Assembly (NCBI GenBank): GCA_021204885.1
Contig: JAJPYP010000020.1
Span: 1 to 14,870, forward strand
DNA: 14,870 nt
Reading direction: 5' to 3'
DNA from: Prevotellaceae bacterium
Lineage (GTDB): Bacteria; Bacteroidota; Bacteroidia; Bacteroidales; Bacteroidaceae
Shown: in pieces, positions 3,257-14,870 of the stretch
Position numbering within the stretch: the stretch's first letter is position 1
How the letters are laid out: each line of letters starts with the position of its first letter
Notes under the pieces: model-generated
What the model was told of the DNA's origin: nothing
The model's database searches: none
Seen by the model: only the letters and a program-made list of their open reading frames with translations
Position numbers and translations under genes: made by a program

Positions 3257-3814
3257 ATGAGATTAAAATTATTAGTGCGCAGTCTCTCTATCGGGGCTAT
3301 GGTATTCGCAATATGCGTAGGGTGTCAGGCTTCAAACAAGAAAGATCTGCGTCATATCCTCACTTCTCAGAAGGAGAGTGGATACAGTAAGGTGATGGTC
3401 GACAGCATAGCATCCATTATCTTTGATTCAAAGAAAGTGTCGTGTTCTCTTCCGTCGGCAAGCGCTGCCGATTCTCTTCGCGTAGATACTATGGCTTGTG
3501 TGCCCGCTTGCGTTGGAAACGCGCTGGTTTGTATTCTTTTTAACGAACAGAATTTTCAAAGGAATGATACCGTCTATGGCATATTTCAACCTTGGGCAAC
3601 GTATGAATTCAGGGCAAGCAAGAAACGGGCCGTATATTTGGAACTGGACTTCAGCCTTCGTAAATGGAAATTGCTTGACAATAACAAGCAGGAGATATGT
3701 GTACAAGATACGAGGTTTGGAAATATGGAACTGCTCTATCTGACAAGGCTGCTCTTTGCCGATGACAAGACTTTGAACCTTTTGAACGAGAACCTTAATT
3801 ACACGAACAAATGA
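3257..3814 (+). CDS. putative lipoprotein, unknown function
   Basis: A 185-residue protein beginning MRLKLLVRSLSIGAMVF, a basic then hydrophobic export signal. Cys23 follows in the context AICVGCQAS. The G-C junction suits lipoprotein processing, but the residue three before the cysteine is another cysteine rather than the usual Leu or Val, so the lipobox is atypical. The mature part has no motif I recognise. Several short beta-type stretches (KRAVYLELDFSLRKWKLLD) hint at a small soluble domain. It starts 19 bases after the barrel gene and overlaps the following caspase-like gene by the four bases ATGA (3811-3814), so translation of the two is probably coupled. The role is unknown; a periplasmic or outer-membrane accessory of the operon is the natural guess. 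Confidence 0.7.
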   Translation: MRLKLLVRSLSIGAMVFAICVGCQASNKKDLRHILTSQKESGYSKVMVDSIASIIFDSKKVSCSLPSASAADSLRVDTMACVPACVGNALVCILFNEQNFQRNDTVYGIFQPWATYEFRASKKRAVYLELDFSLRKWKLLDNNKQEICVQDTRFGNMELLYLTRLLFADDKTLNLLNENLNYTNK

Positions 3815-5031
3815 AAAGGCTTATATTATTCGCAAGTCTTATCCTTGCCATTATCGCAGGTAAGGCACAGACTATTCACTGGTTGACGTTTATTGACACT
3901 ACGGACAAAAATGTTGGACAAATTGACATTGTGGGACGACAAGTGCTTTATTCGCATTTCATCAACGATGTAAACGCGGCATTGGCTCCGAAAGGTTATA
4001 CCACAGACATACAAGACTTCTACGGAAAAAGAACATCTCCCGAGAATTGCAAGGCTGCCGTAGAGGGTCTTCGCATCAGCAACCCTAATGATATTATAGT
4101 GTTCTACTATATAGGACATGGCGGAAGACCGAACACGGATGTGGATTATGTAAAAAAACACCCTTATCCGCAAATGTTTTTGGCACAAAACTATGATGAG
4201 AAGCTTATCCCGCTCGAATGGGTTTACAATGAATTGAGTACAAAGGGGGCGAGGCTGTCGGTTACTATCGGCATGTGTTGCAATGTATTTCAAAACATGA
4301 CTATAAAAGAAGGTCCGGCTTTTTCGCCAAATTATGGAGCTTCCTATATGAGTGGTACGAAGTTGGCGAGGATACAAGAGTTGTTCCTCAATCAGAAAGG
4401 TAGCGTGATTGCCACGTCTTCATCGCCCGGACAGAGTTCAGGGTGTTTTACTACTACCAGTTTTGGTACCATTGATGCATACACTACCGTGTTATGCGAC
4501 ATCTTTAACAACTATCTTGACAGTTACGGCGAGACGCTTACATGGGACGATCTTTTAGGGTCGATAGGTTCTACTATTAACAAAGTGACGGATGGCGAAC
4601 AGACTCCGTTCCACGAAACGCATCTCACGGCAGCCACGGCACCGAAAACCACTACGCCTAATGTACCCACTGACAAGCAGATAGAAGAAACGAAACAAAA
4701 GCAGACTCCCGGCACCACAAAGCAGCAAGGCGATGCAGACAACTGGGTCAACAGCTTGACAAAGAGTCTTGCCACACTTATCAACGTGAATGTCAGCGAG
4801 GAGGACCGCATTAGTTTGGAAAGGAAATTGAATGGTCTGTTTGCCGATGATGCGCAAGTAAAGATACTGGGGCAAGACGGAGACACGACCATCGATCGCG
4901 AGTCGGCCGATGTATTCCTTGGCCGTTTGGCCACGAGCCGCCTTCTGCTGAATGTGGGCGTTGTGGAGGGTAGTTTCAATTCGAACAACAAGATTCAAAC
5001 GCTAAAGGTGCGCGAGGTGTATAAGAAATGA
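3811..5031 (+). CDS. exported divergent caspase-like (C14-type) protein
   Basis: A 406-residue protein with a signal peptide (MKRLILFASLILAIIAGKAQ, cleavage near residue 20). The part from about 21 to 270 has the order of elements of a caspase/clan CD p20-like fold. A strand INDVNAALAPKGY is followed by NDIIVFYYIGHGG with candidate catalytic His103, then ARLSVTIGMCCNV with candidate catalytic Cys156. In typical caspase homologues the cysteine motif is D-x-C-H-S-G; here the Asp is Gly154 and His-Ser is replaced by Cys-Asn, so this is a divergent member. Residues of about 270-305 form a Thr/Pro/Gln/Lys-rich linker. A C-terminal domain (about 310-406) begins with a helix and a segment (LNGLFADDAQVKILG) resembling parts of the next two gene products. 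Its start codon overlaps the upstream stop (ATGA). Activity is not certain from sequence; a structural homologue without catalysis is possible. Confidence 0.75.
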   Translation: MKRLILFASLILAIIAGKAQTIHWLTFIDTTDKNVGQIDIVGRQVLYSHFINDVNAALAPKGYTTDIQDFYGKRTSPENCKAAVEGLRISNPNDIIVFYYIGHGGRPNTDVDYVKKHPYPQMFLAQNYDEKLIPLEWVYNELSTKGARLSVTIGMCCNVFQNMTIKEGPAFSPNYGASYMSGTKLARIQELFLNQKGSVIATSSSPGQSSGCFTTTSFGTIDAYTTVLCDIFNNYLDSYGETLTWDDLLGSIGSTINKVTDGEQTPFHETHLTAATAPKTTTPNVPTDKQIEETKQKQTPGTTKQQGDADNWVNSLTKSLATLINVNVSEEDRISLERKLNGLFADDAQVKILGQDGDTTIDRESADVFLGRLATSRLLLNVGVVEGSFNSNNKIQTLKVREVYKK

Positions 5032-5670: not shown

Positions 5671-7047
5671 ATGCAGCGATTAGAATGGTTAAAGTGCCTG
5701 ATTATAGGCATTTTCGTTCTTATGCCTGTGGGCATGCATGCGCAGGCATTGGCACTGAACGCAACCGACTCATACTTCCATGCGGTGCGCGTGGGGTTGG
5801 TTGACGAGTTTTTCGACCGCTTCAACGGAGTGACCGCACATCCCGACCTTGCCGGCGAAGGGCTGGAAAGTCGTAAGGAGAACCTGTTGATGCTGTTCGA
5901 CTTGTCCCAATTCAAGTCGAAAGAGGATTCATTGTTCGTGGAAGCCCAAAAGTTTGCCGATAAGGTAGCAGAAGATTCCGTATTCATTCATTACGAGGAC
6001 ACCACGTGGTTTGCCCTTGCACATTGCAAAGGCGTGATGGAAGGGCGGAGCGTTAAATTCGATTTGTACCTTACTGTGGAACATAGGAAAGGGAATATGT
6101 ACAAATGGGTGATTGCCAATGCGGGTGGCAGCCTCTTCGACGCCACTCCCCATACTTCTGGCGAGGTTATGCTCTATCCCGATGATCATGAAACCAATTT
6201 CCTTTCCCTGCGGCGCATGACGGAAGAGCAACCGAAGGACGTTTGCGCGTTTATGGAAAAGGGCTTTTCGTATGATCCGACTTCCGCTTTTGCCTATCTT
6301 GTGTATAGTGGCAAGCTTAAGATTGATTACGTGGACGAGTTGGAGTTTGTCTTCACGCAAGTGCCGGGATACATTTTCAATGTGAAGTACTTTGAAAGGG
6401 AACGGAACAACGCCGGGTGGCTGATAGCGGAATGTTACAAGATTTCTGACGAAGGAAAGAAACGCTTGCTTGGTTTAGTACATACAAGCGCGTCGACTGG
6501 GGAGACTTATAAACCGTGCGTACCGGACTCTACGACAATCTATGGCGTGGATTGCGATACTGTCCACACCCTTCAGCCGGATTTTAAGGCGACCTACGAG
6601 CGGCGGTTGTTAGAGAAACTTGCGTTGGCGAAAGACTATATGGCGTTTATGCAGCGCGATGACAGCTTGCGGGCTTCATCGATTTATAAGGTAAAGATGG
6701 AAAGTCTCTTCGTAAAAGAGGCGAAAGTGTTTTTGCTGAACGCGGACGCGGACAGTGTCGCCGTTGTAACTGTCAACGAGTTTTGTGACATGGTAATAGA
6801 GAAAGAGGCAGGACATTTTGTTTTGGATTCTGTTGCCGTGCCTGTTTGGAGCGATGATGTGCTGACACTTGATGCACCCGACAACATTTGTGAGGCTCCT
6901 TCCCGCTTGCAGCCGTTCTCCGGAGAAAAAGCCTCTGAAGGTGCTTTGTACGTTCAAACACTGTATATTTATAAAGAAGAGATAGAAAACGGAGTGGAAT
7001 GGCTGCCCGTATTTGGCGATTTGACGGTAAAAGTTTTAGAGGAATGA
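5671..7047 (+). CDS. exported two-domain protein of unknown function
   Basis: ATG 5671, seven bases after the previous stop and preceded by taaggac, gives 458 residues. The signal peptide (basic start, hydrophobic core, V-G-M-H-A-Q end at 20-25) fixes this start over the in-frame ATG at 5635, which lies inside the previous gene. The N-terminal part (about 30-300) includes DEFFDRFNG and a block with alternating hydrophobic residues, SVKFDLYLTVEHR, of no family I can name. The C-terminal part (about 305-458) resembles the whole mature protein encoded at 5061: EKLALAKDYMAFM against EKVAQMNDYISFM, and NGVEWLPVFGDL against DGVEYIILLGDV. This points to duplication and fusion of a shared module. It overlaps nothing but sits only a few bases from both neighbours, as a middle gene of the operon. 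Probably periplasmic. Confidence 0.7.
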   Translation: MQRLEWLKCLIIGIFVLMPVGMHAQALALNATDSYFHAVRVGLVDEFFDRFNGVTAHPDLAGEGLESRKENLLMLFDLSQFKSKEDSLFVEAQKFADKVAEDSVFIHYEDTTWFALAHCKGVMEGRSVKFDLYLTVEHRKGNMYKWVIANAGGSLFDATPHTSGEVMLYPDDHETNFLSLRRMTEEQPKDVCAFMEKGFSYDPTSAFAYLVYSGKLKIDYVDELEFVFTQVPGYIFNVKYFERERNNAGWLIAECYKISDEGKKRLLGLVHTSASTGETYKPCVPDSTTIYGVDCDTVHTLQPDFKATYERRLLEKLALAKDYMAFMQRDDSLRASSIYKVKMESLFVKEAKVFLLNADADSVAVVTVNEFCDMVIEKEAGHFVLDSVAVPVWSDDVLTLDAPDNICEAPSRLQPFSGEKASEGALYVQTLYIYKEEIENGVEWLPVFGDLTVKVLEE

Positions 7048-7049
7048 TT

Positions 7050-8378
7050 ATGACGAGGAATTATGGCATTATATGGGCTCTCGCGGCATTGACTTGTTCC
7101 GTGGAACTTTCGGCACAAACCGTGCAAGAACGGATTGTAGGGGAGTTTGGCGACAACATGTCGTCGTGGTGCCAGACGGGCAACGCGATGTGGCGTGAGA
7201 AAATAGAACAATTGGTGGAAGGAGTCAAAGGCTGCCGGGTTGACGATGGCATCATGCAATTGTTCGTGAAGAGAGACACGACCTCGTTGCTGTCGCAAGG
7301 AACGGCCGTTGTCGACAATTATCTCAACGGCTTTGACAAGGCCATAGAAAATGGCTTGTCGTATAAACATGGGAAGCCTGTTTGGCAGGAAGGCTATGTG
7401 GAACCGGTGGCTTATTCAGACAAGACGGAAGCTCCGCTGTATTTCGTGAGTATGGATGTGGAGACCAACGGCGATATTGATTACAACGGCACCGACTTGT
7501 TTTTCGTGCGCGGAGGACAGATTACCAAGATAATTGATTTTGGCGGCGATAATTCTCTTGCCGCGGCTATACGCCTCTACTCCTCGCACCAGTATGAAGA
7601 GGCATTCCGTATCTTCCGTAAACTTGCCTATGAAGACCCCAACAACTACGATGCCCAATACTATACCGCCGTAATGGAGATAAAACGACAAGGGTGCGGC
7701 TTCCTTTCAAAGAAAGTAAGGGATATAGAGGCCGCGTGGTGGGTTACCAGAGGCACGTTGAGTTGGTATTCAGAACGCTTTGATAAATTGTACGCTCGAT
7801 TTACCGTTGACGAGACACTTTTGCCTTTCAGTAGAAATAAAGATTTTTACGTGTACTGTTTAAGCATGGAGAAATTGGTAACTGAGGGATTAATGGCGTA
7901 TCAAGTAAAAGGGAAATATGGTTATATAAATGAACAGGGGAATGTTGTCATTCCTTGTAAATACGATATTGTACTTCCTTTTTGGAAAAATGGACGTGCT
8001 TGGGTAAAGAAAGATGGGAAAATAGGATATATTGACAAGCAGGGGAATGAGGTGGTGCGTGTACAATACGACCATGGCATGAGTGAGTTTATCGAAGGCA
8101 AGACCTTTGTTCTCCTGAATGGCTCATTGCTTTTGATTGATGAGCAAGGAAATTTACTCAAAGCTGCCGGCGAAGGATATGATTCTTTGGCTAGAAAATT
8201 TTATAGGGGTAAAGCGTATGCCCACAATGTGTCATCGGGGATGTGGGATCTTTACGACACGGATGGCAACATGACTTCAACTGAGGAAGAAGTTTTTAGC
8301 ATAGACTTTAGGAAGAATTGTTTCTACACTGATATCGGCAACAATACCAGAATGTACGAACAGCCGTTTTGGGAATAA
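7050..8378 (+). CDS. exported protein with a TPR-like segment and WG repeats
   Basis: With ATG 7050 the product has 442 residues and a signal peptide ending E-L-S-A-Q near residue 23. ATG 7044, overlapping the upstream stop, is the alternative; I prefer 7050 because agagga then lies about six bases upstream. Residues 50-165 form an alpha+beta domain with LYFVSMDVETNGD and DLFFVRGGQITKIIDF, strands typical of small NTF2-like domains (inference). Residues 168-215 look like a helical repeat pair (QYEEAFRIFRKLAYEDPNNY). Residues 286-370 hold WG-type repeats: GKYGYINEQGNVVIPCKYD, then GKIGYIDKQGNEVVRVQYD, then a degenerate third, LLLIDEQGNLL. WG repeats form beta-propeller-like binding surfaces of unknown ligand. 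The coding sequence becomes clearly more AT-rich in the WG part. It is the last gene of the operon, before a strong terminator. Confidence 0.78.
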   Translation: MTRNYGIIWALAALTCSVELSAQTVQERIVGEFGDNMSSWCQTGNAMWREKIEQLVEGVKGCRVDDGIMQLFVKRDTTSLLSQGTAVVDNYLNGFDKAIENGLSYKHGKPVWQEGYVEPVAYSDKTEAPLYFVSMDVETNGDIDYNGTDLFFVRGGQITKIIDFGGDNSLAAAIRLYSSHQYEEAFRIFRKLAYEDPNNYDAQYYTAVMEIKRQGCGFLSKKVRDIEAAWWVTRGTLSWYSERFDKLYARFTVDETLLPFSRNKDFYVYCLSMEKLVTEGLMAYQVKGKYGYINEQGNVVIPCKYDIVLPFWKNGRAWVKKDGKIGYIDKQGNEVVRVQYDHGMSEFIEGKTFVLLNGSLLLIDEQGNLLKAAGEGYDSLARKFYRGKAYAHNVSSGMWDLYDTDGNMTSTEEEVFSIDFRKNCFYTDIGNNTRMYEQPFWE

Positions 8379-9177: not shown

Positions 9178-9271
9178 CCGTTCCTGAACGGGAACGGGAT
9201 AATGAAGGGGAAAGGAGCGGGGCGCCGGGCCGTCTGTTTTTTTCCAAGTGTCAACACAAAAGAACAGGATT

Positions 9272-11146
9272 ATGGAAGCGGAGTATGAAAGCAGGATCAA
9301 CGAGAGCGCGGAGCAGCTGTTCCGTGCCATTGAGCGACGCATGACCGCCGAGGACATGCGGCGCATCCGCGATGCATTCGATTTTGCACGCGATGCACAC
9401 AAAGACCAGCGTCGCAAGACGGGAGAGCCATACATCATCCACCCCATTGCCGTGGCACGCATCCTTGCCGTGGAGTTGGAGTTAGGCGCCAATCCTGTCA
9501 TCGCGGCTTTCCTGCACGATGTGGTGGAAGACACGCCCCACACCATCGAGGAGATAGAAACCCGCTTCGGCAGTGACGTGGCGTTCCTTGTGCGCGTGGT
9601 CACCAAGCCGAAGAAGCAGAAGTACGAACAGTCCAAGCAGGTGGACAACTACCGGCAAATCTTGTCGTCGGTACAGTTTGACTTGCGGGCCATCTTGCTG
9701 AAGTTGGCCGACCGCCTGCACAACATGCGCACTTTGGCCAGCATGCGCCCCGACAAGCAGATGAAGATTGCCGGAGAGACGGATTACTTCTACGCGCCGT
9801 TGGCCAACCGCTTGGGGCTGTACCACATCAAGACGGAGTTGGAGGACTTGTCGTTCCAGTACCGTTGCCCCCGTGAATACGAGCAGATGAAGCGGATGTT
9901 GGACGAGGAGAAGGAGCAGGAGAAAGCGCATCTCGACGCTTTCGCCGCCAAGGTGCAGGAGCTTTTGACAGCGGGCGGCATCACGACCAGAATAGAGCTG
10001 CGCTACCGCATGCCTTACAGTATATGCCGCAAGATGCGCTCGAAGAACTGCGACTTCCACCATGCCGACGGCAAGCACTACATCCGCATCATCTATGAAG
10101 CCAATGGCTTGAAAGAGGAGAAAGAGAAGAGCCTGCACATCTACGGCTTGCTGACCGACTACTTCAAGGAGCGCCCGGGAAGCGTGGCCAACTACATCAA
10201 CGCGCCCAAGGAGAACGGGTACCAGAGTTTCCACGTGAAGCTGCTCAACGAGCAAGGGGAGTGGGAAGAGATACACATCGCCTCGGAACGCATGGTGCGC
10301 AACTCCCGGTTGGGCTGCGCGGCCGAACGCACGGAAGAGAACGTGAAGGCTTGGTTGGAGAAGTTCAAGAAGGTGCTGCAAGACGCGGCCTTCCACACGC
10401 AAGAGATGGACTACATGGACGGCGTGACGGCCTCCTTCTACAACGACGACATCATGGTATTCACGCCACAAGGACAGGAGGTTATCTTGCCTAAAGGAGC
10501 CACGGCCCTTGACTTTGCCTTCGAGCGGTTGGGCGAAGAGGGACTTCATGCCTACTTTGCCCGCATCAACGGCAAGATCTTCTCGGTAAAGACGGTGCTG
10601 CACCGGGGCGACTGCGTGGAGATCATCACCCTTGAAACGGCTTCCCCGCAAGAGGAGTGGTTGGGACATGTGTCTACCTACAAGGCCAAGAGCACGTTGC
10701 GCAGCCATTTCGCCAAGAAGGAGAAGTTGGGCTACATACGTTGCGGCCGTTGCCACCCGCTGCCCGGCGACGAGCTCATCGGCTTCAAGGATGCCGACGG
10801 GAAAATCACCCTGCACAAGCGCAACTGCCCCGAAGCCATCCGCATGGCCTCCCAGCAGGGCGACTCCATCGTGGCGGTGAACTTCGAGGAGCGCGAGGAG
10901 TTTCTCTTCCCCGTGCGCATCTACATACGGGGCATCGACCGCCACCACCTGTTGAGCGACGTGGTGGCATGCATCACCGAGAAGCAGAGCCTCTCCATCT
11001 CGCGGCTCACCACCACGACCGTAGACAACATCGTGGAGACTTCGGTAGACTTCGAGATACACTCGGAAAATGAATTGGAACAGACCATGAACTCCATCGC
11101 CGCCATCAAGCATGTGGACGAAGTGGCCCGCATAGACATAGAATGA
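9272..11146 (+). CDS. RelA/SpoT-family (p)ppGpp hydrolase, synthetase domain doubtful
   Basis: 624 residues in the full long RelA/SpoT order. The HD hydrolase domain (about 35-190) has its metal and catalytic residues intact: H57, H82-D83, E86-D87, D147. In the synthetase-like domain (about 235-355), YSICRKM, the NGYQSFH loop and E333 remain. But the R-x-K is R-x-R, the EVQIRT motif is EIHIAS, the conserved AAHW is missing and the acidic residue before RII is shifted by one. A TGS domain (about 392-452), a zinc-finger-like segment (C491, C494, C519) and a C-terminal ACT domain (about 545-624) follow. Most likely it removes (p)ppGpp in the cytoplasm and makes little or none. It is shorter than typical 700+ residue members. 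ATG 9272 is preferred over GTG 9248 because aggatt lies just upstream. The caspase gene begins 37 bases after its stop. Confidence 0.9.
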   Translation: MEAEYESRINESAEQLFRAIERRMTAEDMRRIRDAFDFARDAHKDQRRKTGEPYIIHPIAVARILAVELELGANPVIAAFLHDVVEDTPHTIEEIETRFGSDVAFLVRVVTKPKKQKYEQSKQVDNYRQILSSVQFDLRAILLKLADRLHNMRTLASMRPDKQMKIAGETDYFYAPLANRLGLYHIKTELEDLSFQYRCPREYEQMKRMLDEEKEQEKAHLDAFAAKVQELLTAGGITTRIELRYRMPYSICRKMRSKNCDFHHADGKHYIRIIYEANGLKEEKEKSLHIYGLLTDYFKERPGSVANYINAPKENGYQSFHVKLLNEQGEWEEIHIASERMVRNSRLGCAAERTEENVKAWLEKFKKVLQDAAFHTQEMDYMDGVTASFYNDDIMVFTPQGQEVILPKGATALDFAFERLGEEGLHAYFARINGKIFSVKTVLHRGDCVEIITLETASPQEEWLGHVSTYKAKSTLRSHFAKKEKLGYIRCGRCHPLPGDELIGFKDADGKITLHKRNCPEAIRMASQQGDSIVAVNFEEREEFLFPVRIYIRGIDRHHLLSDVVACITEKQSLSISRLTTTTVDNIVETSVDFEIHSENELEQTMNSIAAIKHVDEVARIDIE

Positions 11147-11183: not shown

Positions 11184-12085
11184 ATGAGGAATGTCCTCTA
11201 TATACTGACCGTCCTTTTTCTCTTCAGCTTGCAGGCGGGGAGCTTACGCGCCCAGACAAAACGGGCGCTCGTCATCGGCTTGGGCCAGCAGGAAGACCCG
11301 GCATGGACCAAGATAAACGGCGACAAGGACGTGCCTTACGTGGAAGAGATGCTGCGCGGCGCGGGCTTCGAGCCGGGCAACATCAGCGAGCTTGTGAACC
11401 GCGAGGCCACCAAGGCGGCCATTGCCGATGCCTTTGAAGCGTTGACAAGCCGGTGCGTCGAGGGCGACATCGTCTACATCCACTTCTCGGGCCACGGGCA
11501 GCAGATGAAAGACCTGAACGGCGACGAGGCCGACGCATTGGACGAATGCTGGATTCCCTACGACGCCTACCGCTATCCTTGTGACAAAGACCAAGGCGAC
11601 AAGCACCTCACGGACGATGAAGTGAACCTTTACCTGAACCGGCTGCGCGAGGCGGTGGGCAGTGAAGGCAAGCTGCTCGTGGTGATCGACGCCTGTCACA
11701 GCGGCGACGCCACCCGGGGCATGACAGGCGAGGTGACACGCGGCGTGGGGAATATATTCGAAGGGCTCAAGGCCTACCTTGTAGGGAAGTCCGGGTATGG
11801 AACAAAGAGCGCGACGGCCAATCCCCACGCGCGTCCCAACCCGGAGCGGTGGATTACCTTGAGCGCCTGCACAAGCAGCCAAGTAAACATCGAGATGGGA
11901 AACCCCGCGGTAGGGAAATTGACCTACGCGCTGTATAAGGAGATAAACCGGAACCCTACAGGCGATAACGCGGACCTGTTCCGACGAATAAAGAAGTTTG
12001 TCAACGACCACACCGGGAGCCGCCCGCAATACCCCGTCCTGACGGGCGAGACAGACACATTCAACATAACCGATATCCTAAGATA
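11184..12085 (+). CDS. secreted caspase-family cysteine peptidase (C14)
   Basis: The start at ATG 11184 gives 300 residues; an in-frame ATG at 11148 would put 12 residues before the signal peptide. The signal peptide (MRNVLYILTVLFLFSLQAGS, then LRAQ) ends near residue 23-24. The mature protein is little more than a caspase domain: TKRALVIGLG (first strand), His104 in YIHFSGHGQQ, the acidic loop GDEADALDECWIPYD, and Cys171 in VVIDACHSG, followed by WITLSACTSSQ. His104 and Cys171 form the expected dyad and both motifs are canonical, so activity is likely. The acidic loop and Asp169 resemble metacaspases and paracaspases, which cut after Arg or Lys (family knowledge; specificity here is inferred). 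Its location should be periplasmic or extracellular. Its stop overlaps the sigma factor start (TAATG), so the two are probably translated together. Confidence 0.92.
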
Positions 12086-12724
12086 ATGGCAAAGACCGTA
12101 CAACTACGCACCCCCTTGCAAGAGAAAGAGGCAGCCCTTGTTGCCGGCATGTACAAAGGGGAAGTCAGGGCGCAATATGAAATGTACTCGTATTGTGCCG
12201 ATTACTTCAAGGACAACTACAAAGGATTGTTCTTCATAGAGTGGAAAGATGCCGAAGAGATATTCCAGAACAGCTTCATCGCGTTTTGGGAGAACATCCA
12301 GAACCGCAAGATATACGTGAAAGAGGGTTTTGTGACAGGCAAGGACGACCGGCCGCTCAAGGGCAGCATCCTTACCTACTTCATGGCCATCGCCCGGAAC
12401 AAATACCGCGAATGGTTACGCGACCATTCCGTCTTGATCAACCCGGAGACCGACTTGCCCGAGACGGACGAGCCCATGGACTACGGGTATGATTCCGACC
12501 AGACCGACGTGCTGGAGATTATAGCCGACGTGCTTTCGAACATGTCGGCCCGCTGCTACGAAATATTGACCAAATTCTACTATGAAGAGAAGGATTTGGA
12601 CATCATTCTCATGGAGATACCCGAGATGAACTCGAAAGACGCGCTCAAGACCAAAAAGCACAAGTGCTTGGAACAGTTGCGCAAAACGGTGAAAGCGATT
12701 TACTACAAGGAGTTGAACGCATAA
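12086..12724 (+). CDS. ECF-type RNA polymerase sigma factor
   Basis: A 212-residue sigma-70 family protein of the extracytoplasmic-function type. Region 2 spans about 28-115, with the typical DAEEIFQNSFIAFWENI block and SILTYFMAIARNKYREWLR. A charged linker (about 118-140) and region 4 (about 142-205) follow, with a helix-turn-helix-like LDIILMEIPEMNSKDALKTK and the closing CLEQLRK. It directs RNA polymerase to a small set of promoters, unknown here. It is tied to the caspase gene by a TAATG stop-start overlap and is followed 12 bases later by a gene for a single-pass membrane protein, the usual place of an anti-sigma factor. An autoregulated promoter is common for such factors, but none is seen directly upstream because the gene lies inside the operon. 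Confidence 0.9.
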   Translation: MAKTVQLRTPLQEKEAALVAGMYKGEVRAQYEMYSYCADYFKDNYKGLFFIEWKDAEEIFQNSFIAFWENIQNRKIYVKEGFVTGKDDRPLKGSILTYFMAIARNKYREWLRDHSVLINPETDLPETDEPMDYGYDSDQTDVLEIIADVLSNMSARCYEILTKFYYEEKDLDIILMEIPEMNSKDALKTKKHKCLEQLRKTVKAIYYKELNA

Positions 12725-12736
12725 AAAAGGACGGAT

Positions 12737-13387
12737 ATGGATACAAAGTTTCAAGACAGCATAGACAATTACTTGACAGGACGCCTGACCGCCGAAGAGG
12801 AGAAACGGTTCCTTGAAGAGGTGGCTGGAGACAAGCAGAAGAAGGAGCAATTGGAGTTTACCCGGCAAGTCAAGGAGACCATCACCAGCAGGGAAGAGAA
12901 GCTCAAGGCGTTGGCCGGGTTCAAGAAGCGGTATGAAGACGAGCACACGCCGTTCGGCCGTACCGGAACGGATTCGGGCATACGCTTCTCGGTATCGGAA
13001 AAGGGGGAAAGGCCGATGCCTTCATACAGCCAATATATGGAGTCGAGATTTGAGGAGACAGAAAGGCGTGCAAAGTCCAAGAAGTCTTCTTCCAAGAAGA
13101 TATGGTTATGGGTAGCGGGTATCGCGGCAGTAATAGCTGTCGGGGTATTTGTGATAAGCCCCCTGTTCATGGCAACTGCCCCCGACCCAAAGAGCATGAT
13201 GCCCGAAGACCACCCGCGTGGTGACGATGAAGTATTTGGGCCAAAAGAGTTAGAAGAGAAGTTAATGGAAAATATGTCGGAAGAGCGAGCAGCACCCGAA
13301 GCGTCGGAAGCCACGGAAGCGTCGCCGGCATCGCAAGATACCATAACTGTATCGGAAGATGGACCTGATGAAACGGAATCTGAATAG
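12737..13387 (+). CDS. single-pass membrane protein, probable anti-sigma factor
   Basis: 216 residues with no signal peptide. The N-terminal part (1-121) is charged and helical and begins like many Bacteroidetes anti-sigma proteins (FQDSIDNYLTGRLTAEEEKRF, a pattern of zf-HC2-like starts, here without the zinc-binding Cys/His). It ends in a basic run (KSKKSSSKK). One membrane helix follows at about 122-146 (IWLWVAGIAAVIAVGVFVI). The remaining 70 residues are acidic and rich in Glu, Ala, Ser and Pro, looking unstructured. By the positive-inside rule the N-terminus is cytoplasmic and the acidic tail periplasmic. An aaaaaagga ribosome site precedes ATG 12737. Position directly after the sigma gene suggests it holds that factor inactive at the membrane. 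No anti-sigma domain is proven from sequence; a structural membrane partner of the proteases is the alternative. Confidence 0.72.
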   Translation: MDTKFQDSIDNYLTGRLTAEEEKRFLEEVAGDKQKKEQLEFTRQVKETITSREEKLKALAGFKKRYEDEHTPFGRTGTDSGIRFSVSEKGERPMPSYSQYMESRFEETERRAKSKKSSSKKIWLWVAGIAAVIAVGVFVISPLFMATAPDPKSMMPEDHPRGDDEVFGPKELEEKLMENMSEERAAPEASEATEASPASQDTITVSEDGPDETESE

Positions 13388-14870
13388 GCCGGCGCTCCTG
13401 TCGGTCGCCCTTCTTTGCCTCTTCCTGCCTTTGAGGGCGCAGTCGCCCGTAGGGACGGCAGGAGGTGCCGCGCGGCAGGTGGCGCATGCCCCGTCGGCAT
13501 CACCGCTTGCCCTGTATGTGCAAGGCATGGAATACCTCTTGGCCCAACAATATGACGAGGCGTTGACGCTGTTCGAGGGTGCCTTGACCGGCTATCGTGC
13601 CTTGGGCAAGAGGGACGGCGAGATAGAGTCCTTACAGAAGATAGCCGCCGTCAAGATGCACATGTACGACTTCGCCGCCTCCAAGGAGCGTTACGCCGAG
13701 GCGCTCGCCTTGGCCAAACAGGCAGGCGACACCTCCAAGCAGATGGAACTGCTCAAGGAGATGTGGTCGATGGCCGACAAGGCGGAAGACCGTGGACTCA
13801 TGCGCACCTGTTCGGCCGCCATGGACACGTTGATGGAAAGGGTGACGGACGTCAAGACGAAGTTCGCCTACTGCCAGCTCAAAGGAGACGAGGCAAACGG
13901 AAACGGACAAATCCGCTTGGCCGAAGAGTGGTACAAGCGGGCGGTCGACTTGGCCGAAGGAAACGAACCGGGAGCCGAGGCGCTGAACAAAGACGTGGCA
14001 TATGTAAAACTCAGGGACCTGTACGTCTATAACGGCCGATACGAAGAATCCCTTGTCTATGCACGCAAGTCGTTGGTGGCCTATCAGGAACTCACGCCTG
14101 CCGACGACGAGGACTACTACCTACCCTACTTCATGTTGGCCCATATCTACTGCATGATGGGCGACAAGGCCGGCTGCCTTGCTACCTTGGACACGCTCTT
14201 CACCAACATCGCCACCCTGACGGAACCCCGAAAACAGAGCGTGCGTTACACCACCCGCGCCACTTGCTTGGCCTATTTTGGAGATTACACCGAAGCGCTT
14301 GCCGACTTCCGCCGGGCCGACGAGGCGCTGGCCACGAAATACCCGCCTGCCGACGGAGACAGGGTAAAGCTGCTGCCGCTCATCGGCGGCTTGGAGAACC
14401 GGTTGGGGAACTATGAAGCATCGGAAGAGTGCTATGGCCTCTATACCGGTTACATCAGGCAAATCTATGGCCCACAAAGCATGGAACACATCAACGCCCG
14501 CATCTACTTGGCCAATGCCGAGGGCTTTGCAGGCCACTTGGCGGCGGGTTGCTTAGACTATACCGAAGCCACCGCGGCGCTAAAGGCGATGATGAAAGAG
14601 CACTTCCCCTATATGAGCGCCACCGAGCAAGAGGGCTTCTGGAAACCCGTCTCTTCCCTCTTCACGTTGATGACACCCTACGCCTTGGAAGCCGGGGAAC
14701 GGCAATCCCCCTTCACCCGAAGCTGTTACGACGCGCTCGTCTTGTCCAAGGCCTTCCTGCTGGCCTCCGAGCGCACCCTCTTCGACGTGGTGAAAGAGAA
14801 AGGCACCCCGGAGGATATGCGCGACTACATGCGGCTCGCGGCCATGAAGCAACGCATCAAGGCTTGGGAG
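13368..14870 (+). CDS. exported TPR protein, probably TPR-CHAT peptidase (partial, open at window end)
   Basis: The frame stays open from ATG 13368 to the last base: 501 codons, no stop. The signal peptide (MKRNLNRPALLSVALLCLFL, then PLRAQ near 25) supports this start; ATG 13359 is also in frame. The gene starts 20 bases before the upstream stop, overlapping it in another frame, with ggaag nine bases before the ATG. Tetratricopeptide repeats fill about 45-400, for example LYVQGMEYLLAQQYDEALTL, IRLAEEWYKRAVDLA and LAYFGDYTEALADFRRADEA. Residues of about 415-501 (MMKEHFPYMSATEQEGFWKP, then YDALVLSKAFLLASERTLFD) match the segment just before the CHAT domain in TPR-CHAT proteins. CHAT is a caspase-like cysteine peptidase domain; its catalytic residues would lie beyond the window. 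Calling it TPR-containing is secure, CHAT is a strong inference. It would act outside the cytoplasm, next to the caspase encoded at 11184. Confidence 0.85.
   Translation, partial: MKRNLNRPALLSVALLCLFLPLRAQSPVGTAGGAARQVAHAPSASPLALYVQGMEYLLAQQYDEALTLFEGALTGYRALGKRDGEIESLQKIAAVKMHMYDFAASKERYAEALALAKQAGDTSKQMELLKEMWSMADKAEDRGLMRTCSAAMDTLMERVTDVKTKFAYCQLKGDEANGNGQIRLAEEWYKRAVDLAEGNEPGAEALNKDVAYVKLRDLYVYNGRYEESLVYARKSLVAYQELTPADDEDYYLPYFMLAHIYCMMGDKAGCLATLDTLFTNIATLTEPRKQSVRYTTRATCLAYFGDYTEALADFRRADEALATKYPPADGDRVKLLPLIGGLENRLGNYEASEECYGLYTGYIRQIYGPQSMEHINARIYLANAEGFAGHLAAGCLDYTEATAALKAMMKEHFPYMSATEQEGFWKPVSSLFTLMTPYALEAGERQSPFTRSCYDALVLSKAFLLASERTLFDVVKEKGTPEDMRDYMRLAAMKQRIKAWE

What the first reader, a model, noticed from the sequence alone, without database searches (positions are those of the whole stretch)
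11184..14870. Caspase - ECF sigma - membrane anti-sigma - TPR-CHAT operon: candidate protease-gated sigma switch
Seen: four same-strand genes with overlaps or gaps of 12 bases or less encode a secreted caspase with intact His104/Cys171, an ECF sigma factor, a single-pass membrane protein with an acidic outer tail, and an exported TPR protein with the pre-CHAT signature. Known: anti-sigma factors are often inactivated by regulated proteolysis. In type III-E CRISPR systems (Craspase) a TPR-CHAT protease cuts Csx30, which binds the ECF factor RpoE. Inference: here two caspase-clan proteases in the periplasm may control a sigma factor through its membrane partner. I do not know of a described system with this exact set and exported proteases.
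Basis: partly seen in the sequence, partly recalled or inferred. Interest (0 to 1): 0.78.

Follow-up and report, generated by a model that had tools for sequence, protein, structure and literature searches.

The report
Caspase-linked sigma factor switch
Gut Bacteroidales carry a gene set in which an exported caspase-like protease probably cuts a membrane protein that holds a gene-switching sigma factor inactive, so a protease family best known from cell death may here transmit an outside signal to gene expression.

Summary
The four genes are as described. The order caspase-sigma-membrane protein-TPR/CHAT is complete in 14 of 20 related loci; TPR homologues carry CHAT, but the window ends before its own.

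New here: of 54 related loci, 31 have the caspase directly upstream of sigma and 9 have PrsW there, the known anti-sigma (RsiW) protease. The membrane protein's outer stub has Arg-[Gly/Ser/Ala] in 58 of 59 loci whose fetched stretch holds a caspase (shuffles: mean 22.8, maximum 35), and in 2 of 9 PrsW loci. Of five core genomes with no caspase found and no PrsW beside sigma, three lost it; one of these keeps a caspase remnant.

Best reading: an exported metacaspase-like enzyme is the site-1 protease of a membrane anti-sigma factor. CHAT's role, signal and regulon are unknown. Against: tree-corrected support is small, and among distant relatives the motif does not track the caspase (caspase in 4 of 17 genomes with the motif, 7 of 11 without). 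Caspase-sigma neighbourhoods and TPR-CHAT control of a sigma factor are in print; a membrane-anchored version with PrsW swap I did not find.

The parts
11184..12086 (+). exported metacaspase-like peptidase (C14): leader segment then catalytic domain
11493..11495 (+). catalytic His104 codon (S102-G-H104)
   Evidence: His and S102 invariant in 38 of 38
11694..11696 (+). catalytic Cys171 codon (D169-A-C171)
   Evidence: Cys and D169 invariant in 38 of 38
11739..11744 (+). Arg186-Gly187 in a low-confidence loop 15 residues after the catalytic Cys: possible self-processing site
   Evidence: invariant in the 25 rows of A4; pLDDT under 50 at 183-189; but R[GSA] in this loop is also in 12 of 18 located control C14 proteins
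12086..12724 (+). ECF-type sigma factor
   Evidence: TIGR02937 E 1.3e-8, below cut-off; family profile matches SigW of PDB 5wuq, E 3.3e-6
12737..13387 (+). single-pass membrane anti-sigma factor (inferred)
   Evidence: 65 matches, the window's own included; place after sigma conserved; more Lys+Arg before than after the membrane segment in 56 of 59 caspase-linked members
13100..13156 (+). transmembrane segment, residues 122-140
   Evidence: hydropathy
13217..13222 (+). predicted cleavage site Arg161-Gly162 in the outer stub
   Evidence: R161 and G162 at least 90% conserved in A2, 21 rows; R[GSA] in 62 of 65 matches and 58 of 59 caspase-linked loci
13359..14870 (+). exported TPR protein, N-terminal part of a TPR-CHAT protein; cut off by the window end
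   Evidence: TPR_12 E 9e-14; 54% identity over 456 residues to a full-length homologue; homologues carry CHAT PF12770

Best explanation
This is an envelope-signalling operon. The sigma factor is held inactive by the cytoplasmic part of the single-pass membrane protein (inferred). The exported caspase, a metacaspase-like protease expected to cut after Arg, acts as site-1 protease and cuts the outer stub at a conserved Arg-[Gly/Ser/Ala] (Arg161-Gly162 here), about 20 residues outside the membrane. A housekeeping M50 site-2 protease would then clear the rest and release the sigma factor. The TPR-CHAT protein probably senses the signal or controls the caspase; in some lineages it is missing. In related operons PrsW fills the caspase's slot. 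Shown: gene order, domains, topology signals, slot swap, conserved Arg in caspase-linked members. Inferred: the cut itself, the anti-sigma activity, the signal, the CHAT role.
For: Order complete in 14 of 20 scan loci. Of 54 related loci, 31 have the caspase and 9 have PrsW directly upstream of sigma; PF13367 E 3.7e-36 and 9e-37 in the two PrsW genes checked. R[GSA] within 45 residues outside the membrane: 58 of 59 loci with a caspase in the fetched stretch (2000 shuffles: mean 22.8, maximum 35), 2 of 9 PrsW loci; K[GSA] only 17 of 59. In the core set 38 of 38 against 2 of 9, Fisher p 5.7e-7, not corrected for kinship. Losses: the genomes of L003, L011 and L107 give no caspase at E<=1e-15 and their stubs have no R[GSA]; L087 and L116 keep it and their genomes hold a caspase elsewhere. 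L003 has a frameshifted remnant of the caspase C-terminus just before sigma, and both Arg-Gly places of its relative L005 are changed (alignment by eye). Genomes G513, G620 and G633 hold a PrsW copy without the motif and a caspase copy elsewhere; in G513 and G620 that copy's stub could be read and has it. Leader segment in 38 of 38 caspases; D169 and S102 invariant; metacaspase fold. Ten loci with caspase and no CHAT keep the motif. M50 protease in 16 of 18 genomes.
Against: No biochemistry. Independent contrasts on supported branches number 6-7; the motif follows the caspase in a mean of 4.1-4.8 and opposes it in about 0, sign test median p 0.06-0.125. In the core, 5 of 8 loci with neither protease in the stretch still score R[GSA]: L087 and L116 (caspase elsewhere), L088 (none found), L014 (R-R-A), L108 (R-A far out in a helix). 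L017, PrsW-linked, has R-G; L146, caspase-linked, has R-D. Among distant relatives the link fails: of 17 loci with R[GSA] and no caspase in the stretch, 4 genomes hold a caspase; of 11 without R[GSA], 7 do, three of them weakly. R[GSA] has a sizeable chance rate in 45 residues. Two caspase hits of the wider set, L120 and L159, lack the Asp-Ala-Cys pattern. The model of sigma plus membrane protein says nothing about an interface, and Pfam names no anti-sigma domain.
Confidence: 0.55

Rival explanations
1. The sigma/anti-sigma pair controls the caspase and CHAT genes as part of its regulon, and the anti-sigma factor is cut by another protease. The caspase works elsewhere in the envelope.
For: Autoregulated ECF operons are common (established knowledge). 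Other exported proteins lie in these operons. Many distant relatives keep the Arg without a caspase.
Against: Does not predict PrsW in the caspase slot, nor the near-universal Arg in caspase-linked members against 2 of 9 PrsW-linked ones. No shared promoter dyad above shuffles upstream of 14 operons, though that scan is weak.
Confidence: 0.22
2. The TPR-CHAT protease, not the caspase, cuts the anti-sigma factor, as Csx29 cuts Csx30; the caspase activates CHAT.
For: TPR-CHAT is conserved in the close relatives and has two invariant Arg just before the CHAT LPGS segment (44 of 44 rows). Of six loci with CHAT and no caspase nearby, four score R[GSA] in the tail, one of them at the membrane edge.
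Against: Ten loci with caspase directly upstream and no CHAT in the stretch keep the motif. R[GSA] before LPxT is also in 9 of 16 located control CHAT proteins.
Confidence: 0.13
3. The conserved Arg-Gly block is a docking site or contact for the caspase or TPR protein, not a cut site.
For: In the core family the block is longer than a P1-P1' pair: P156, R161, G162, D164, F167.
Against: Across the wider set Arg plus a small residue is kept with different neighbours, as expected for Arg at P1.
Confidence: 0.1

Closest known systems
PrsW-RsiW-SigW of Bacillus subtilis (site-1 cleavage of a membrane anti-sigma factor; recalled)
   Same: ECF sigma, single-pass membrane anti-sigma factor, site-1 protease; PrsW itself sits directly upstream of sigma in 9 of 54 related loci; the only solved relative found for the sigma is SigW
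   Different: Here the slot holds an exported cysteine protease of the caspase fold, not a membrane-embedded PrsW
Type III-E CRISPR Craspase: Csx29 (TPR-CHAT), Csx30, CASP-sigma (PMC10028731, passages read)
   Same: A TPR-CHAT protease, an inhibitor of an ECF-like sigma factor, release by cleavage
   Different: There RNA-activated and CRISPR-linked; here exported proteases, a membrane-anchored inhibitor and a second protease of the caspase family. No CRISPR family passed its cut-off among the proteins scanned
Metacaspase operons with sigma-70 factors in Myxococcus and others (PMC3501461, section 13 and passages read)
   Same: Caspase and sigma factor in one operon
   Different: No mechanism, membrane anti-sigma factor or cut site is described in that section
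EACC2-caspase systems with ECF sigma and DUF1822 TPR protein (PMC8195603, passages read)
   Same: Caspase, ECF sigma and TPR genes as neighbours; self-cleavage and a transcriptional output proposed
   Different: Caspase fused to EACC2 and variable domains; no membrane anti-sigma factor in the passages seen
ECF54 with CHAT, subtilase or carboxypeptidase neighbours (PMC8999054, section 3.3 read)
   Same: Proteolytic control of an ECF sigma proposed from gene context, with CHAT

Membership tests
Peptidase C14, metacaspase type | caspase-fold domain with His-Cys dyad | tested here: met
Peptidase C14, metacaspase type | acidic S1 pocket (Asp two before Cys, Ser two before His; recalled) | tested here: met
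   D169 and S102 in 38 of 38
Peptidase C14, metacaspase type | cleavage after Arg or Lys | not testable with these tools
   needs purified enzyme
ECF sigma factor | sigma2 and sigma4 regions without sigma3 | tested here: inconclusive
   TIGR02937 34.6 bits, cut-off 42.9; profile match to SigW E 3.3e-6; Foldseek matches of the linked model to ECF sigma chains have E 0.056 or worse
Class I anti-sigma factor | N-terminal three-helix bundle plus fourth helix that bind the sigma factor (PMC7406223, passages) | tested here: inconclusive
   model has three N-terminal helices and one before the membrane, but no Pfam anti-sigma domain and no interface measure
Class I anti-sigma factor | often one membrane helix, N-terminus in the cytoplasm | tested here: met
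   one segment, positive-inside in 56 of 59 caspase-linked members; a hydropathy rule, not a topology experiment
TPR-CHAT protein | C-terminal CHAT domain with His and Cys | not testable with these tools
   window ends before it; homologues L002, L012, L018 have PF12770 at E 1.3e-45 to 1.2e-48
Type III-E Craspase | Cas7-11 effector and CRISPR array in the locus | not tested
   no dedicated search; none among the window proteins scanned
PrsW-type site-1 protease system | PrsW next to the sigma/anti-sigma pair | tested here: not met
   not upstream of sigma in the window; caspase there instead

The most novel reading that the evidence does not exclude
An apoptosis-like protease cascade in the periplasm drives transcription: the metacaspase matures by cutting itself at Arg186-Gly187, cuts its TPR-CHAT partner at the conserved Arg before the CHAT core, and cuts the anti-sigma factor at Arg161-Gly162, one Arg-[Gly/Ser/Ala] code for all three; the protease slot of this sigma lineage is exchangeable between caspase and PrsW.
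Probability: 0.22. Interest if true: 0.88.

Novelty: new variant of a known kind. Interest (0 to 1): 0.7.

Why it matters
What exported bacterial metacaspases do is largely unknown. If this is right, they have a defined substrate with a predicted residue, and a job (site-1 proteolysis of an anti-sigma factor) so far given to other protease classes such as PrsW and DegS. It would also suggest that an anti-sigma factor can change its protease by changing a short stub, and it would widen the Craspase principle of protease-gated sigma release to a periplasmic setting without CRISPR.

Tried and rejected
Shared motif in three proteins: attractive at first, but R[GSA] after the catalytic Cys is in 12 of 18 located control C14 proteins (12 of 30 not located) and before LPxT in 9 of 16 located control CHAT proteins (14 of 30 not located). 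The controls came from 40 genomes picked mostly for lacking this sigma family; one (G038) has a weak member, one located CHAT (L225) has a caspase beside it, and L246 and L247 show the same segment. I keep the idea only as the novel case.

Sigma/anti-sigma interface: the linked fold gave pTM 0.68 and weak domain-level matches; no interface score is returned, so it is neither for nor against.

Autoregulation: no -35/-10 like dyad in 14 upstream regions above shuffles; some gene starts were set by hand.

Window's own CHAT: no whole genome is held, and the third protein search did not list the near relative's TPR-CHAT among the 120 shown of 749, so it stays unread.

Motif-caspase link outside the core family: not upheld. 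Loci with R[GSA] and no caspase in the stretch, tested: 17 (L127, L147-L149, L151-L154, L156, L161, L165, L166, L171, L173-L176); caspase in the genome of 4 (L147, L149, L152, L153). Five of the 17 are doubtful as tests: trypsin-like tails L154, L171, L173, an unrelated ORF L127, a membrane-edge hit L176. Loci without R[GSA]: 11 (L124, L125, L128, L150, L158, L163, L164, L167, L168, L170, L172); caspase in the genome of 7, three of them at only E 1e-18 to 1e-19.

Rows dropped before counts: of 115 loci, 8 had no membrane ORF by my rule and are not (caspase loci L132, L137, L140; also L155, L160, L162, L169, L177), leaving 59 caspase, 9 PrsW and 39 with neither. 'Caspase' means a caspase profile hit over 60 bits anywhere in the fetched stretch. 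The 39 still contain five ORFs that look unrelated (L123-L125, L127, L128), which were left out of the tree. In one search the LP pattern was not found in 57 of 120 proteins; the Arg columns were counted on 44 aligned rows.
Full report
OBSERVATION. The window holds, on the + strand, caspase 11184-12086, sigma 12086-12724, membrane protein 12737-13387 and a TPR protein from 13359 that runs off the end. The caspase matches Peptidase_C14 (E 8.6e-20) with His104 and Cys171. The sigma factor matches the ECF model TIGR02937 below its cut-off; a family profile finds SigW of PDB 5wuq (E 3.3e-6). The membrane protein has one hydrophobic segment and a 76-residue acidic tail; no Pfam family passed its cut-off in it.

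CONSERVATION. A scan of species genomes with a profile of the sigma factor gave 20 loci. The order caspase-sigma-membrane protein-TPR/CHAT is complete in 14 of 20: L001, L002, L004-L007, L009, L010, L012, L013, L015, L016, L018, L020. In L001 the TPR-CHAT frame is split in two; in L012 an 85-aa ORF lies between caspase and sigma. Of the other six, L008 ends soon after the membrane protein; L003, L011 and L014 have no intact caspase and no CHAT hit in the stretch held (L011 and L014 are short); L017 and L019 have PrsW instead. CHAT was checked by Pfam in L002, L012 and L018 (PF12770, E 1.3e-45 to 1.2e-48). The window's TPR part reaches only residue 618 of a 1055-aa homologue, so its own CHAT is inferred. 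The sigma family is patchy: E<=1e-12 in 37 of 399 genomes of the family; in the order sample two of 393 matched at E 1e-50 or better, one being the centre genome itself.

PROTEASE SLOT. I mapped 34 more loci of related sigma factors. Of the 54 loci besides the window, 31 have the caspase directly upstream of sigma, nine have PrsW there (L017, L019, L091, L092, L095, L097-L099, L105), six have a caspase in the stretch but not directly upstream (L012, L086, L094, L100, L102, L114), and eight have neither (L003, L011, L014, L087, L088, L107, L108, L116). Ten have the caspase directly upstream and no CHAT in the stretch (L090, L093, L096, L101, L103, L104, L106, L109-L111). The two PrsW genes checked match PF13367 at E 3.7e-36 and 9e-37; the other seven rest on a local profile. 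PrsW is the site-1 protease of the anti-sigma factor RsiW in Bacillus subtilis (recalled). On a sigma tree of 76 rows the state caspase/PrsW/neither changes at least 12 times. A known anti-sigma protease and a caspase at one and the same place is the strongest context evidence that the caspase does the same job.

CANDIDATE CUT SITE. In 21 aligned membrane proteins the outer tail is variable except for a block with R161 and G162; 62 of 65 matches have R[GSA] after the membrane (of the three others one has R-D and two look truncated or out of frame). Of 115 loci, 107 had a readable tail. R[GSA] lies within 45 residues outside the membrane in 58 of 59 with a caspase in the fetched stretch (shuffle mean 22.8, maximum 35 in 2000), in 2 of 9 PrsW loci (shuffle mean 1.7) and in 22 of 39 with neither (shuffle mean 11.6, maximum 19). 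The caspase locus without it is L146 (R-D). In the core set (window, L001-L020, L084-L117) the counts are 38 of 38, 2 of 9 and 5 of 8; Fisher's test caspase against PrsW gives p 5.7e-7, not corrected for kinship. With correction, 6-7 independent pairs on supported branches differ in caspase; the motif follows in a mean of 4.1-4.8 and opposes in about 0 (median p 0.06-0.125).

LOSSES. Five core genomes gave no caspase at E<=1e-15 and have no PrsW beside sigma: L003, L011 and L107 have lost R[GSA], L014 has R-R-A, and L088 keeps R-G (draft genome). L087 and L116 keep the motif without a neighbouring caspase, and their genomes hold one elsewhere. L108 is a second sigma copy in a genome whose caspase sits with the first; it has only an R-A far out. 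L003 is telling: a frameshifted remnant of the caspase C-terminus lies just upstream of sigma, and the two Arg-Gly places of its relative L005 read R-N and H-D (by eye). G003, its genome, also lacks an M50 match, so it may be incomplete, but the local remnant stands. Genomes G513, G620 and G633 carry both kinds: the PrsW copies (L091, L097, L098) lack the motif, the caspase copies L090 and L135 have it, and L140 had no readable tail.

LIMITS. Outside the core the link is not upheld: of 17 distant loci with R[GSA] and no caspase in the stretch, 4 genomes hold a caspase; of 11 without R[GSA], 7 do, three weakly. So the Arg is older or broader than the caspase link, or other proteases use it. Two caspase hits of the wider set (L120, L159) lack the Asp-Ala-Cys pattern. 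The same dipeptide after the catalytic Cys (Arg186-Gly187, invariant in 25 rows, in a low-pLDDT loop) and the two Arg before the CHAT core (44 of 44 rows) suggested one code for three substrates, but controls show R[GSA] in 12 of 18 located C14 proteins and 9 of 16 located CHAT proteins. That idea is only the novel case.

MECHANISM. Most likely the caspase is a site-1 protease of the anti-sigma factor, cutting at Arg161-Gly162, with sigma release by later steps (confidence 0.55). TPR-CHAT is probably a sensor or controller of the caspase. Signal and regulon are unknown.

PRIOR ART. Seen: PMC10028731 passages (Csx30 inhibits CASP-sigma, cut by Csx29); PMC3501461 section 13 and passages (metacaspase operons with sigma-70 in Myxococcus and others); PMC8195603 passages (EACC2-caspase with ECF sigma and a TPR gene); PMC8999054 section 3.3 and passages (ECF54 with CHAT neighbours); PMC7406223 passages (class I anti-sigma fold); PMC9308784 passages (a different Bacteroidales sigma/anti-sigma envelope response). 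The listings, judged by titles and starts of abstracts, showed no description of a caspase cutting a membrane anti-sigma factor; the library holds open-licence papers only.

Noticed in passing
window 3811-5031: A second, divergent exported caspase-like protein (weak Raptor_N and caspase profile hits; Gly-His-Gly and Met-Cys-Cys-Asn in place of Asp-Ala-Cys-His), amid proteins without Pfam hits and one WG-repeat protein (6999-8378). Similar proteins lie near the operon in L002 and L020.
   Followed up: partly
L163, L171, L154 and similar loci: In distant relatives the membrane protein after sigma carries a trypsin-like protease segment outside the membrane (GTxFAxSSxG; NPGNSG in L163 and L171), which would put a DegS-like protease on the anti-sigma factor itself. 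Named from the sequence only.
   Followed up: no
L096, L101, L103, L104, L106, L109-L111: A CHAT-free variant: caspase, sigma, membrane protein with a helical-looking tail, then exported proteins, in most of about 230 and 500-740 aa; the one of L103 has a transglutaminase-like hit below cut-off.
   Followed up: partly
L017 3340-6901 and L019: PrsW-linked copies sit behind a DUF6057 protein and a PD40 beta-propeller protein (Pfam in L017; local profile in L019).
   Followed up: no
window 9248-11146: A 632-aa ORF that reads like a RelA/SpoT-type protein (recalled; no family search run) ends 37 bases before the caspase start on the same strand; among L001-L020 only fragments in L006, downstream, resemble it.
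   Followed up: no
C14 proteins in L194-L217: Arg followed by Gly, Ser or Ala 8-30 residues after the catalytic Cys recurs in C14 proteins without this sigma beside them (12 of 18 located); it may be a general self-processing site.
   Followed up: partly
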